In this document: positions 27,268-31,248 of the stretch, piece by piece
How positions within the stretch are numbered: position 1 is the first letter of the stretch
How the letters are laid out: every line of letters starts with the position of its first letter
Source of the DNA: Candidatus Rokuibacteriota bacterium
GTDB taxonomy: Bacteria; Methylomirabilota; Methylomirabilia; Rokubacteriales; CSP1-6
NCBI GenBank assembly: GCA_023248995.1
Contig: JAHFDN010000009.1
Coordinates: 1-64,000, forward strand
Reading direction: 5' to 3'
Length of the DNA: 64,000 bases
Notes under the pieces: model-generated
The model's database searches: none
What the model saw: the letters and a program-made list of their open reading frames with translations, nothing else
What the model was told of the DNA's origin: nothing
Program-made: the position numbers and the translations under genes

Positions 27268-27705
27268 ATGCCCAGGATGTTCGACCGGATTCAGATGATG
27301 CAGCGCGGGGAGATCCCCCCGGCGCCGATCGCCACGCTGATCGGGTTCACGCTGACGTCCATCGAACCCGGCCGGGCCGTCATCGAGCTCGAAGCGACCG
27401 AGCGCCATGCCAACCCGGTCGGGACGCTCCACGGCGGCGTCTTCTGCGACATCGCCGACGCCGCGATGGGAATGGCCTACGCCAGCACCCTCGGGGAGGG
27501 GGAGACGTTCACCACCCTCGAACTCAAGATCAACTTCCTCAGGCCGATGTGGACCGGCAAGCTCCGTGCGGTGGCCAAGATCGTGAGCGCGGGGCGGACG
27601 ATCGGCCTCGTGGAGTGCGACGTGCTGGATGAACGGGAGCGGCTCGTGGCCAGGGCGACCAGCACCTGCATGACTCTCCGCGGCGCCGACGCGCGGGATC
27701 GGTGA
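27268..27705 (+). CDS. PaaI-type hotdog thioesterase
   Basis: This 145-residue hotdog-fold protein is of the PaaI/YigI acyl-CoA thioesterase type. The signature LHGGVFCDIADAAMG (HGG then Asp) and the following AYASTLGEG and LKINFLRP strands fit the family. It probably hydrolyses aryl- or acyl-CoA esters. ATG 27268 follows the M23 stop directly; the upstream in-frame extension would run inside the peptidase gene. Confidence 0.85.
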   Translation: MPRMFDRIQMMQRGEIPPAPIATLIGFTLTSIEPGRAVIELEATERHANPVGTLHGGVFCDIADAAMGMAYASTLGEGETFTTLELKINFLRPMWTGKLRAVAKIVSAGRTIGLVECDVLDERERLVARATSTCMTLRGADARDR

Positions 27706-27769
27706 ATCCCCTCGGCAAGACCCGCCATCCAAATCGGTAACTGCCCCAACCCGACAAGGAGGTTCCCCC

Positions 27770-28234
27770 ATGGCCGAGCTGATCCACATTTCCAGGGTGA
27801 AGATCGTCAAGGACAAGGGGCCGACCCGCCGGGCCTACATCGAGGCCTTCCCCGAACCGGTCCGGTACGGGGTCCACGGCGGGATCAAGAAGTTCTACGG
27901 GGTGGAGCCGGAGGAGGAGCTTCCGACGACCCTCGACCACATCGTCGCTGCGGTCGCGGGCTGAATGACCGGCACGCTAGCGGTTGCGCTAGCCGCGAGG
28001 AAGATCCCGACCCAGCCCGACCGCCTGTCCTCGGAGGTCGAGGGATTCATCGAGCACGTGGACGGTAAGCCGCTGATCACAAGGATTAAGGTGCACTACC
28101 GGGTCAAAGTCCCCACGGGCAAGCGCGAGGAGGCGCAGCGCGCCATCGACGTCCACGAAAAAGGCTGCCCCGCTTCGCAGTCCGTTCAGCGCGGCATCGC
28201 CATCGAATGGGACGGCCAGGTGGTCGAAGAGTAA
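27770..28234 (+). CDS. OsmC-family peroxidase, predicted selenoprotein (Sec65)
   Basis: OsmC/Ohr proteins reduce organic or hydrogen peroxides with a Cys pair. Here the frame from ATG 27770 (AAGGAGG 7 bases upstream) runs 64 codons to TDHIVAAVAG-like sequence, meets TGA at 27962-27964, and continues in the same frame as MTGTLAVALAARKIP through to TAA 28232. Joined, the 154 residues form one complete OsmC domain. The TGA stands exactly where OsmC proteins have the first catalytic Cys (the AGC-M motif), and the second Cys is C133 in HEKGCPAS. A hairpin follows the TGA. I read it as selenocysteine. A nonsense mutation is the alternative but would not explain the position, the hairpin or the intact downstream frame. 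Confidence 0.85.
27976..27993 (+). promoter_or_regulatory. Predicted bacterial SECIS hairpin
   Basis: GCTAGCG (27976-27982) pairs perfectly with CGCTAGC (27987-27993) around a GTTG loop. The stem begins 11 bases and the loop 18 bases after the TGA at 27962-27964, within the spacing known for bacterial SECIS elements, and the loop opens with G. Both halves force the rare leucine codon CTA in a genome that prefers CTC/CTG. A lower CG/CG pair with a bulge may extend the stem. Confidence 0.7.
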
Positions 28235-28238
28235 AGAC

Positions 28239-29456
28239 TCAGCGCGGGACGCCGAAGATCAGCCGCGGGGAGAGCAGCGCGCGCGGCGGGACGAAGTCGC
28301 CGAGCACGCCCATGAGGAGACTCAGGAGGTCGGGGCGCCGCCGAAGCCGGTGGGCCACGAAGTTGGCCAGCCAGCGCCGCCCGATCACCGCCTGAAGCAG
28401 GCGCGTCACCCGTCCCTTGTCCCCGAACGCCGCGTCGCGCGCGCGCCAGAAGGGCTCCAGCGCCGCCCGGGAGACATCGCCGCCGACGAGCGCCAAGTGT
28501 CCGGTCGCCGCGGCCAGCTCGGCAGAGCGCAAGGCCGCATAGATGCCTTCTCCCGTGAACGGGTCGAAGAAGCCTGCCGCATCGCCGATCACGAGCACAC
28601 CCCCGTGGCGCGGGCGCTCTACCCGGTACGCGAGCGGGCCGAGCGCGGCCACCGGCGCGACCGACCGCATGCCCGCCAGGCGCGGCGCCAGGTGATCGAG
28701 CTGTTTGAGCCGGGCGAAGAAGAACGTCTCGAGCCGCCCCGCGAAGGGCGCGGCGTGACCGAAGGGGACCACCAGGCTGAGGCTCGCCACGCCGGCGGCC
28801 ACCGGGTTCAGGATGGCGTAATCCGGCGGGTCCACGTAGATTTCCCCCAGATCCTCGAAGTCACCGAGCCCCTCCACGTACGTCAGGAGGGCCATGCGAC
28901 GAAGCGCGTGCGCGCCAAGGAGGCCGAGCCGGCGGGCCACGACCGACTGCCGCCCGTCGGCGCCGATCACGAGGGGCGCCCGCGCTTCGAGCACGCGACC
29001 ATGGACATCGGCAGCCCGGACTCCCACCACCCGGTCGGTCTCGACGAGCAGGTCCTCGACACGGTGACGCTCGCGAACCTCCACGGGGAGCGCCTTCGCG
29101 CGCTCCACGAGAATCTGATCGAAGCTGAGCCGCCTGATCGCCAGCGCGTGATCGCGGTAGCCGCGATAGGCCCCCGCGGTCGGATAGCGTCCCTCGAGCC
29201 GAGTCCCATCGGGCGCCGTGATCTGCATCCCCCGAATCGGAACCGCCCCCGCCTGGTCCACCGCTTTCAGCACACCCAGTCGATCGAGGATCCGGGCCGT
29301 CTCGGGGCTCAGATACTCGCCGCAGAGCTTGGGACGGGGGAAGGCCGCTTTGTCGAGGAGGAGCACCGAGTGACCGTGCTCGGCCAGGAGAACAGCGGCG
29401 GCGCTCCCCGCCGGACCGGCGCCCACGACGATCGCGTCGTACACCCGCGCGCTCAC
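28239..29456 (-). CDS. FAD-dependent oxidoreductase, geranylgeranyl-reductase/hydroxylase type
   Basis: A 405-residue group A flavoprotein: N-terminal dinucleotide fold AIVVGAGPAGSAAAVLLAEHG, the LLDKAAFPRPKLCGEYLSP segment, and GVLVIGDAAGFFDPFTGEGIYAAL, which binds FAD and is typical of geranylgeranyl reductase-like and phenolic hydroxylase enzymes. It overlaps the methyltransferase by 4 bases and follows the type III polyketide synthase, so it most likely oxidises or reduces that pathway's lipid product. It converges with the OsmC gene with a 4-base gap. Confidence 0.85.
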   Translation of the reverse strand: MSARVYDAIVVGAGPAGSAAAVLLAEHGHSVLLLDKAAFPRPKLCGEYLSPETARILDRLGVLKAVDQAGAVPIRGMQITAPDGTRLEGRYPTAGAYRGYRDHALAIRRLSFDQILVERAKALPVEVRERHRVEDLLVETDRVVGVRAADVHGRVLEARAPLVIGADGRQSVVARRLGLLGAHALRRMALLTYVEGLGDFEDLGEIYVDPPDYAILNPVAAGVASLSLVVPFGHAAPFAGRLETFFFARLKQLDHLAPRLAGMRSVAPVAALGPLAYRVERPRHGGVLVIGDAAGFFDPFTGEGIYAALRSAELAAATGHLALVGGDVSRAALEPFWRARDAAFGDKGRVTRLLQAVIGRRWLANFVAHRLRRRPDLLSLLMGVLGDFVPPRALLSPRLIFGVPR

Positions 29457-30169
29457 TCTCGGACCCCCACGACGGCGAGCCTCACCCGGAGCGGATGGCG
29501 GACGACGCGAATGCCCGAGAGCCCGGCCCGGGCGGCCAGCGACCCGATCTCCTCGGGAGTATAGGCCCGCAGGACCGAGAGGGGGCCATCGTGCCTGGAC
29601 ATCCGGTGCCAGGCGAAGAGCCGCGTCGCGAGCCAGACGAGGGCGTAGGCCACGCGGCTTCGGATGAGATCGTTCACGACGAAGCCGATCCGGGCGACCC
29701 GCGCCATCTCCCCGAGGAGCTGGGGCGCCACCGCGGGCTCGAGATGGTGAAGGGTGAGCGAGGAGATCGCCGCGTCCACGCCGCTGGCCCTGAGGGGCAG
29801 GTGGAGGCCATCGGCCTGGACCAGGGAGATCTCCGGATACGCCGCGGCCCGCCGGCGCGCCACCTCCAGGATCTGCCGGTCCCGGTCCACCGCGATCAGG
29901 CGGAGTCGCCGCCCTCGTCGCCGCGCCCAGCGGGCGAGCCTGACGGGGATGTCGGCGCCCCCGCTCCCCACGTCGAGCACGGTCATCGGCTCACTCCGGC
30001 AATGCCGGAGCAGCCGGGTCAGATGAGACTGGGTCACCGACGCGCCGCCGAAGTAGCGATTCAGACGGGCAACATCGTCGAGGTTCTCCCGAAGCTCGGA
30101 CAGGGGGGCCGGACCGTCGAGAAGCTCGGCTCTGTCGTGGGACCGCGGGAGAGCGCGGAAGAGCGCCAT
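29453..30169 (-). CDS. Class I SAM-dependent methyltransferase
   Basis: A 238-residue methyltransferase. The SAM-binding motif TVLDVGSGGADIPVRLARWA begins at about residue 62, the acidic residue of motif II is in LRLIAVDRDRQIL, and motif IV is DAAISSLTLHHLEP. ATG 30169 lies 11 bases after the polyketide synthase stop, and the 3' end overlaps the flavoprotein. The context suggests O- or C-methylation of the polyketide-derived aromatic lipid. Confidence 0.87.
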   Translation of the reverse strand: MALFRALPRSHDRAELLDGPAPLSELRENLDDVARLNRYFGGASVTQSHLTRLLRHCRSEPMTVLDVGSGGADIPVRLARWARRRGRRLRLIAVDRDRQILEVARRRAAAYPEISLVQADGLHLPLRASGVDAAISSLTLHHLEPAVAPQLLGEMARVARIGFVVNDLIRSRVAYALVWLATRLFAWHRMSRHDGPLSVLRAYTPEEIGSLAARAGLSGIRVVRHPLRVRLAVVGVRE

Positions 30170-30180
30170 ACGAAAACCGG

Positions 30181-31212
30181 CTACCAGCGGAGCAGCGCGC
30201 CCTCGGCGGCAAAGCCCGGCCCGAGCGCGATCATGACGCCCCAGTCCCCGGGCACGGGCTGGGCGCGCCTCAGCGCTTCCTCGAAGACGAAAATCACCGT
30301 CGCCGACGACATGTTGCCGTACCGGCCGAGCACGGCCCGCGAGGCGGCAACGTCGTCGGCGCTCAGGTCCAGCAACTCCTGCACGTTCTCGATGACGCGC
30401 CGGCCGGCGGAGTGGAGGATCCAGAACGCGACGTCCTCTTTCTTCAGGCCCTGGGAAGCGAGGAGGGACGTCGCCATCTCTTTCATCATGACTCCGCCGA
30501 TCTTCCGGACCTCCTTGGAGAGGATGACCTGCGGCCGGCCCCCCGGGTAGCGGAACCCCATGGCGTCCAGGTGCTCGGAGCGAAAGAGCGTCTGGTGTTC
30601 GACGAGATTCGCGCCCTCGCCCTCGGTGCCGAGTGCCAGCGCCCCGGCGCCGTCGGCGAAGATGGCGTGAGCCACCGCGCTCTCCAGGCGGTCGTCCAGG
30701 TAGTAGGCAGCCGAGCAGATCTCCACGGCGACGACCAGTGCGCGATGACCGGGGAACGCCCTCAGGTGGTTGGACGCCTGCTGGAGGGCCACGAGGGCGC
30801 TGGCGCAGCCGGTGTCTCCGACATGGACCCGCTGGATGTCCGGACGGCAACCGAGATCACGGATCAGGTGAGCGTCCAGGCTGGGGCAGAGCCGCCCCGT
30901 GCAGGTGGTGGTGGCCAGGAAGTCCAGGTCGCGGGGCTGCCAGCCTGCGCGCTCGAGGCAGGCGCGCGCGGCCGCACTCCCGCATTCGAGCGCGCCCCGC
31001 TGGAAGCGGTCGTTCAGCTCCTCGGCGCTCTCGTCCGTGCGCACGCGGGCCGGATCGAGGTAGAGGTAGCGTCCCTCGATCCCGCTGTTGGCAAAAAACC
31101 CCCTGCGCTGCGCGTCCTCGTAGCCGGCGAGCAGAGCCACTTGTGGCTGGGGAAAGTAATGGGCCGGCGTGGCGGTGGCGACGGCCAGGATCTTCGGGTT
31201 CCCGGGCGGCAT
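30181..31212 (-). CDS. Type III polyketide synthase
   Basis: A chalcone-synthase-like homodimeric synthase of 343 residues that extends an acyl-CoA starter with malonyl-CoA. The Cys-His-Asn triad is clear: VGDTGCASALVALQ, FWILHSAGRRVIENV and LGRYGNMSSATVIF. Bacterial relatives (ArsB/ArsC, SrsA) make alkylresorcinols and alkylpyrones. A second ATG at 31224 overlaps the -10 box; ATG 31212 lies 7 bases after it and is chosen. The methyltransferase and flavoprotein downstream parallel the srsABC arrangement of Streptomyces. Confidence 0.9.
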   Translation of the reverse strand: MPPGNPKILAVATATPAHYFPQPQVALLAGYEDAQRRGFFANSGIEGRYLYLDPARVRTDESAEELNDRFQRGALECGSAAARACLERAGWQPRDLDFLATTTCTGRLCPSLDAHLIRDLGCRPDIQRVHVGDTGCASALVALQQASNHLRAFPGHRALVVAVEICSAAYYLDDRLESAVAHAIFADGAGALALGTEGEGANLVEHQTLFRSEHLDAMGFRYPGGRPQVILSKEVRKIGGVMMKEMATSLLASQGLKKEDVAFWILHSAGRRVIENVQELLDLSADDVAASRAVLGRYGNMSSATVIFVFEEALRRAQPVPGDWGVMIALGPGFAAEGALLRW

Positions 31213-31219
31213 GGTGTGG

Positions 31220-31248
31220 AGCATACGCCCCGTCCCGGCCGCTGTCTA
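31220..31248 (-). promoter_or_regulatory. Promoter of the type III PKS operon
   Basis: TAGACA (31248-31243), 17-base spacer, TATGCT (31225-31220). ATG 31212 begins 7 bases downstream, with no ribosome-binding site between, so the mRNA should be leaderless. Confidence 0.6.

What the first reader, a model, noticed from the sequence alone, without database searches (positions are those of the whole stretch)
27770..28234. OsmC-family peroxidase encoded as a selenoprotein (in-frame TGA at the catalytic Cys)
Two short frames (27770-27964 and 27965-28234) lie in the same phase, separated only by TGA 27962-27964. Joined, they make one normal-length OsmC domain. The TGA falls where OsmC proteins have the first redox Cys (AGC followed by M), and the second Cys (C133, HEKGCPAS) is intact. 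Ordinary annotation would split this into a 64-residue unknown protein and a truncated OsmC. OsmC-like selenoproteins have been reported from metagenomic surveys, so the class is known, but this gene would be missed by standard callers. A Sec/Cys pair would make a faster peroxidase.
Basis: partly seen in the sequence, partly recalled or inferred. Interest (0 to 1): 0.9.

Follow-up and report, generated by a model that had tools for sequence, protein, structure and literature searches.

The report
Selenocysteine-containing OsmC protein, unlisted subfamily
A bacterial gene that standard annotation would cut in two at a TGA stop codon is one protein of the OsmC (peroxide-detoxifying) fold in which that TGA almost certainly encodes the rare amino acid selenocysteine, and it belongs to a nearly selenium-only subfamily, found in several phyla, that I could not find in current family models or selenoprotein inventories.

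Summary
In detail: 27770-28234 is one frame interrupted only by TGA 27962-27964, and read through it gives a 154-residue OsmC domain with U65 at the peroxidatic-Cys position and C133 at the second Cys. Open frames on both sides of a TGA are common here (117 in this GC-rich window), so the evidence is homology. 96 of 97 distinct homologues have TGA at this exact codon; the one exception has TGC and has also lost the hairpin. All 37 further matches in a 395-genome sample drawn around a Desulfopila genome carry one TGA. The genome has selA, selB, tRNA-Sec(TCA) and a Sec-containing selD. A hairpin 18 nt after the TGA meets the published bacterial SECIS model, and its stem is held by rare CTA codons. 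AlphaFold gives a confident OsmC fold (pLDDT 96.5) with U65 inside a helix. The published OsmC selenoprotein (UxxT; NF041052) is a different subfamily, and no NCBIfam model reaches cut-off on the window protein. So: a new, almost exclusively Sec-using subfamily of a known kind of selenoprotein. The catalytic Arg/Glu of Ohr/OsmC are not clearly conserved, so peroxidase activity is plausible but untested.

The parts
27756..27762 (+). AAGGAGG ribosome-binding site of the read-through gene
   Evidence: read directly from the sequence, 7 nt before ATG 27770
27770..28234 (+). OsmC-fold selenoprotein gene, 154 residues read through plus stop TAA 28232-28234
   Evidence: translation; Pfam OsmC 52.5 bits; AlphaFold pLDDT 96.5 over the whole length and OsmC/Ohr structures as best matches
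27962..27964 (+). in-frame TGA read as selenocysteine, U65 (peroxidatic-Cys position)
   Evidence: TGA in 96 of 97 distinct homologues, TGC in one; every match of two further genome searches carries one in-frame TGA (one of them also a TAG)
27976..27993 (+). predicted bacterial SECIS hairpin: GCUAGCG [GUUG] CGCUAGC, 7-bp stem, 4-nt loop starting with G, 18 nt after the TGA
   Evidence: fold and constraints; published bSECIS model (PMC13188914); rare-codon and pairing evidence
28166..28168 (+). TGC, C133, the second redox residue (invariant Cys-Pro)
   Evidence: invariant in alignment A1; TGC/TGT in all 110 loci
27268..27705 (+). upstream neighbour, hotdog-fold thioesterase; not shown to be linked in function
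   Evidence: Pfam 4HBT, NCBIfam TIGR00369; neighbourhood not conserved in distant relatives

Best explanation
27770-28234 encodes one OsmC-fold thiol/selenol redox protein. The ribosome reads UGA 27962-27964 as selenocysteine, using SelB, tRNA-Sec(UCA) and the SECIS hairpin just downstream; this is shown by comparative evidence, not by experiment. Sec65 sits in the central helix where Ohr/OsmC enzymes carry the peroxidatic Cys, and Cys133 sits where they carry the second Cys. By analogy with Ohr/OsmC (inferred), Sec65 attacks a hydroperoxide to give a selenenic acid, forms a selenenylsulfide with Cys133, and is reset by a dithiol reductant. The gene belongs to a distinct subfamily (motif U(M/L)xGT) that uses Sec almost without exception in Methylomirabilota, Acidobacteriota, deltaproteobacterial (Desulfobacterota-type) and some actinobacterial genomes.
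For: TGA at codon 65 in 96 of 97 distinct homologues (the window's own gene among them; the others 46-93% identical to it), with C133 codons intact in all 110 loci. The phylum-wide search found the gene or a relative in 58 of 95 genomes and every match carries an in-frame TGA. A 395-genome sample around the Desulfopila genome gave 37 matches in 36 genomes, each with one TGA. Own genome: SelB 380 bits, SelA 593 bits, tRNA-Sec 70.9 bits with anticodon TCA, clustered on contig C51; SelD 347 bits and itself Sec-containing, CAGUASK. The hairpin meets all four published bSECIS constraints. CTA is 1.2% of Leu codons in the window, yet stands at the two stem Leu codons in 18 and 19 of 30 close homologues. 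The lone Cys homologue L080 has no such hairpin. Model pLDDT 96.5 with U65 inside helix 54-76; PDB matches are OsmC/Ohr along about 150 columns. SelB over cut-off in 46 of 50 genomes with the gene; selA found in the other four.
Against: No experimental proof of Sec. Per-sequence hairpin strength against synonymous recoding is only moderate (mean z -1.5; 25% of sequences at p<=0.05). Five Methylomirabilota MAGs with the gene or a relative of it lack both selA and selB, among them G087 (100% complete) and G061 (95%). The usual catalytic Glu ten residues before Cp is Leu/Ile here, with an invariant Asp next to it; the Arg is Arg in 42 and Lys in 4 of 46.
Confidence: 0.94

Rival explanations
1. 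The TGA is a real stop and the locus is two translationally coupled small proteins, the second starting at ATG 27965.
For: An ATG follows the TGA directly, in this gene and in most homologues.
Against: Leu CTC, not a start codon, follows the TGA in L129, L130, L043 and L044. No ribosome-binding site before ATG 27965. The break falls inside helix 54-76 of one confident fold. Invariant residues lie on both sides of it. A second start would not explain TGA rather than TAA/TAG in all 96, nor the TGC of L080.
Confidence: 0.02
2. The TGA is a sequencing error, or the gene is a dying pseudogene.
For: The window comes from a metagenome-assembled genome.
Against: The same codon is TGA in 96 distinct homologues from many assemblies and several phyla, with both frames otherwise intact.
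Confidence: 0.005
3. UGA is read as another amino acid (altered code or suppressor tRNA).
For: A few bacterial lineages do reassign UGA (general knowledge).
Against: TGA ends 31 of 49 long ORFs in the window. The position aligns to Cys, not Trp or Gly. A full Sec system is present.
Confidence: 0.01
4. It is a selenoprotein but not a hydroperoxide peroxidase; it acts as another redox or sulfur-handling protein, like the OsmC-fold group of YhfA, whose activity is unknown.
For: The Ohr catalytic Glu position is Leu/Ile; the family has its own invariant residues G34, H36, K40, F42, Y43, D56 and E95. The Ohr/OsmC family includes members of unknown activity (PMC5962072).
Against: Sec/Cys occupy the two redox positions of Ohr/OsmC. 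The gapped alignment puts Asp56 on a Glu of E. coli OsmC at the corresponding place, and OsmC proper carries its Arg in a different loop from Ohr (PMC5962072), so the triad may be re-formed.
Confidence: 0.35

Closest known systems
OsmC-like selenoprotein, UxxT type (Sargasso Sea survey, PMC1088965; listed in PMC13188914; its motif fits NCBIfam NF041052)
   Same: OsmC fold, Sec at the first Cys position, bacterial SECIS downstream
   Different: Motif AFULMTQ (UxxT) instead of AGUMTGTL (UxxGT). The window protein scores 25.8 bits against a cut-off of 95. The two are separate, well-supported clades. Both occur in one phylum and sometimes about 0.8-1.4 kb apart.
OsmC peroxiredoxins (TIGR03562; T. 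thermophilus 1ukk, E. coli 1nye)
   Same: Fold and both redox positions; 1ukk is the best PDB sequence match and second-best fold match
   Different: Cys, not Sec; 35.5 bits against a cut-off of 85.8; 24% identity or less in the fold alignments
Ohr organic hydroperoxide resistance proteins
   Same: Fold and Cp/Cr positions
   Different: Cys; catalytic Glu ten residues before Cp is Leu/Ile here; only weak sequence matches

Membership tests
Bacterial selenoprotein | In-frame TGA aligned with Cys in homologues and conserved | tested here: met
   96 of 97 distinct homologues TGA, one TGC; aligns to Cys of 1ukk and 1nye
[quoted passage not shown]
   4-nt loop GUUG, 7 bp, 18 nt, -11.3 kcal/mol
Bacterial selenoprotein | Genome encodes SelA, SelB, SelC, SelD | tested here: met
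Bacterial selenoprotein | Selenium present in the protein | not testable with these tools
   needs 75Se labelling or mass spectrometry
OsmC superfamily (PF02566) | Profile match over the curated cut-off, and OsmC fold | tested here: met
   52.5 bits against 27.5; fold search
NF041052 OsmC-related (seleno)protein, UxxT type | Score over the cut-off of 95 bits and UxxT motif | tested here: not met
   25.8 bits; 20 of 46 members match weakly, best E 4.6e-6; motif UxxGT
OsmC peroxiredoxin TIGR03562 | Score over the cut-off of 85.8 bits | tested here: not met
   35.5 bits
Ohr/OsmC peroxidase | Cp and second Cys in place | tested here: met
   position 65 (U, or C in L080) and C133 invariant
Ohr/OsmC peroxidase | Catalytic Arg and Glu | tested here: inconclusive
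   R20 in 42 of 46 (Lys in 4); the -10 Glu is Leu/Ile, invariant D56 lies at -9; the alignment shifts D56 onto a Glu of E. coli OsmC with a one-residue gap
Ohr/OsmC peroxidase | Dithiol-dependent hydroperoxide reduction | not testable with these tools
   needs an enzyme assay

The most novel reading that the evidence does not exclude
A third, almost obligately Sec-using OsmC subfamily (UxxGT) spread over several phyla, absent from curated family models, in a phylum (Methylomirabilota) where most OsmC-fold genes appear to use Sec; it may have a re-formed active site (Sec65 with Asp56 and Lys40/His36) and a function other than Ohr-type peroxide reduction.
Probability: 0.45. Interest if true: 0.65.

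Novelty: new variant of a known kind. Interest (0 to 1): 0.52.

Why it matters
Many Sec families have abundant Cys counterparts (general knowledge); in the genomes searched here this one has a single Cys version, so the enzyme seems to depend on selenium, and that one natural Cys switch, with its decayed SECIS, gives a ready-made comparison. No NCBIfam model reaches its cut-off on the window protein, so such genes are likely split or truncated in public annotation. Members occur in named deltaproteobacterial genomes (Desulfacinum hydrothermale DSM 13146, Desulfopila sp. IMCC35006), so the prediction can be tested in culture. It also adds to the picture of Methylomirabilota as unusually rich in selenoproteins (a 63-selenoprotein genome is cited in PMC13188914).

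Tried and rejected
Plain open-frame length as evidence: rejected, since 117 TGAs in the window look alike. Whole-segment folding energy: only z = -1.5, not decisive alone. Gene neighbourhood as a clue to function: no neighbour is conserved outside close relatives; the largest cluster is antisense shadow of the gene itself. Rfam: no hits at the gathering threshold, so no help with the SECIS. Plasmid and phage collections: no match. A second selB (L007): the tool listed a SelB C-terminal-like frame there, but far below the cut-off, and the single frame I translated is not open, so it was not counted as a second selB. The NF041052 label was considered and rejected on score and motif. Reading annotation of the cultured relative: record not held.

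Full report
What is there. The window lies in a 2.34-Mb metagenome-assembled genome, 97% complete. At 27770-28234 two in-phase frames are separated only by TGA 27962-27964. Read through, they give a 154-residue protein. The read-through protein matches Pfam OsmC at 52.5 bits; the downstream half alone gives 37.3 and the upstream half nothing. A ribosome-binding site AAGGAGG precedes the first ATG and none precedes the second. Because the DNA is 69% GC, read-through frames are common by chance (117 similar cases), so the claim rests on comparison.

Conservation of the TGA. A scan of the GTDB genome collection returned 80 loci, and a phylum-wide search found matches in 58 of 95 genomes, with an in-frame TGA in every match. 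After removing duplicates from 110 loci there are 97 distinct proteins: 96 have TGA at codon 65 and one, L080 from a Syntrophaceae genome, has TGC. The second Cys codon is TGC or TGT in all. The collection scan used peptide patterns that would have caught Cys versions of the motif, so it did not favour TGA. A profile search of 395 genomes sampled around the Desulfopila genome found 37 matches in 36 genomes, each with exactly one TGA. The residue after the TGA is Leu in part of the family, and coded CTC in L129, L130, L043 and L044, which excludes a start codon there.

Machinery. The genome has a selA-selB-tRNA-Sec cluster on contig C51 (SelA 593 bits, SelB 380 bits, tRNA-Sec 70.9 bits with anticodon TCA) and SelD on C22, itself Sec-containing with the motif CAGUASK. 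Of 50 genomes from other hits, 46 have SelB over the cut-off, and selA was found in the four that do not. Five Methylomirabilota MAGs that carry the gene or a relative of it lack both selA and selB at the thresholds used. Since these genes form one cluster here, loss of one contig would explain it, but that is inference; G087 is listed as 100% complete and remains a loose end.

SECIS. The published bacterial SECIS model asks for a 3-9 nt loop with G in its first two positions, a 4-16 bp stem, 16-37 nt from the UGA, and at most -7.5 kcal/mol (PMC13188914). The window has GCUAGCG[GUUG]CGCUAGC, 18 nt after the UGA, -11.3 kcal/mol. Against synonymous recoding each single hairpin is only moderately special (mean z -1.5 over 96 sequences, 25% at p<=0.05), but nearly all have one, in three main sequence forms: CGCUAGC-type in close Methylomirabilota relatives, CUGGCCA-type mainly in deltaproteobacterial relatives, and CGCGCAC-type in Acidobacteriota, with related forms elsewhere. 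CTA makes up 1.2% of Leu codons in the window, yet the two stem Leu codons are CTA in 18 and 19 of 30 close homologues, and CTC, the commonest Leu codon, is nearly absent there. These are related sequences, so the counts are not independent events. The single Cys homologue has no qualifying hairpin; L095, a TGA homologue, also has none within the loop sizes I scanned (3-8 nt).

Structure and function. AlphaFold on 46 family members gives pLDDT 96.5, with U65 inside helix 54-76, and the best PDB matches are OsmC and Ohr proteins over about 150 columns. U65 and C133 are the only Cys/Sec residues of the protein. In Ohr, Cp works with Arg19 and Glu51 (PMC5962072). Here Arg20 is Arg in 42 of 46 and Lys in the rest; the position ten before Sec is Leu/Ile and the next one is an invariant Asp56; G34, H36, K40, F42, Y43 and E95 are invariant. 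The alignment, with a one-residue gap, places Asp56 on a Glu of E. coli OsmC at the corresponding place. Peroxide reduction by Sec65 with Cys133 as resolving residue is therefore the leading but unproven function. Gene neighbourhood gives no help. This is the only OsmC-fold gene found in this genome.

What is known. OsmC-like selenoproteins were reported from the Sargasso Sea with motif UxxT (PMC1088965), and the 2026 inventory of 119 prokaryotic selenoprotein families and subfamilies lists only that one OsmC entry (PMC13188914). The UxxT motif fits NCBIfam NF041052: its 22 over-cut-off members in this phylum all carry TGA, and the ones read show AFULMTQ or a close variant. That the Sargasso type and NF041052 are the same family is my inference from the motif. 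The window protein scores 25.8 bits against the NF041052 cut-off of 95, and no NCBIfam model reaches its cut-off on it; other members match the same models only weakly. A tree separates this family (100/100), NF041052 (100/98) and a third Sec type, ALGxUTSMT and similar (99/95). By the inventory's own rule, that differing Sec motifs make distinct subfamilies, this is a new subfamily. I could search only open-access text; subscription papers, including the groundwater study with the 63-selenoprotein genome, were not readable, so earlier mention cannot be excluded.

Verdict. The class is known; this subfamily, its near-absence of Cys forms and its lack of a curated model are the new part.

Noticed in passing
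Methylomirabilota genomes; L133-L153 (type B), L160, L162, L179, L182, L183, L187-L190 (type C): At least three Sec-using OsmC subfamilies coexist in the phylum. Of the OsmC matches listed for 95 genomes, 57 (hand count) have no stop inside and the rest, about 100, have one in-frame TGA.
   Followed up: partly
G048:C17:97236-98913, G050:C121:115617-117930, G052:C115:24082-25756: The window-type gene and the NF041052-type Sec-OsmC gene lie about 0.8-1.4 kb apart on opposite strands in these genomes.
   Followed up: no
G000:C22:271492-272433 (L018): SelD of this genome is itself a selenoprotein, CAGUASK.
   Followed up: yes
L080 4001-4456 (Syntrophaceae MAG, G127): Natural Cys version in a genome that keeps selA and selB: a Sec-to-Cys switch with loss of the SECIS hairpin but not of the machinery.
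   Followed up: partly
G087, G061: Near-complete MAGs with Sec-OsmC genes but no selA or selB found; probably a missing contig, not proven.
   Followed up: partly
window 58084 (+) and 19817 (-): Two other TGAs with long, coding-like frames on both sides by codon-position GC (533/416 and 548/269 codons); they may simply be adjacent genes in the same frame.
   Followed up: no
window 28239-31224 (-): FAD-dependent oxidoreductase (28239-29456), an unscanned frame between the two (within 29453-30850) whose translation reads like a methyltransferase, and a ketosynthase III / type III polyketide synthase-like gene (30181-31224): looks like a small lipid or polyketide operon.
   Followed up: no
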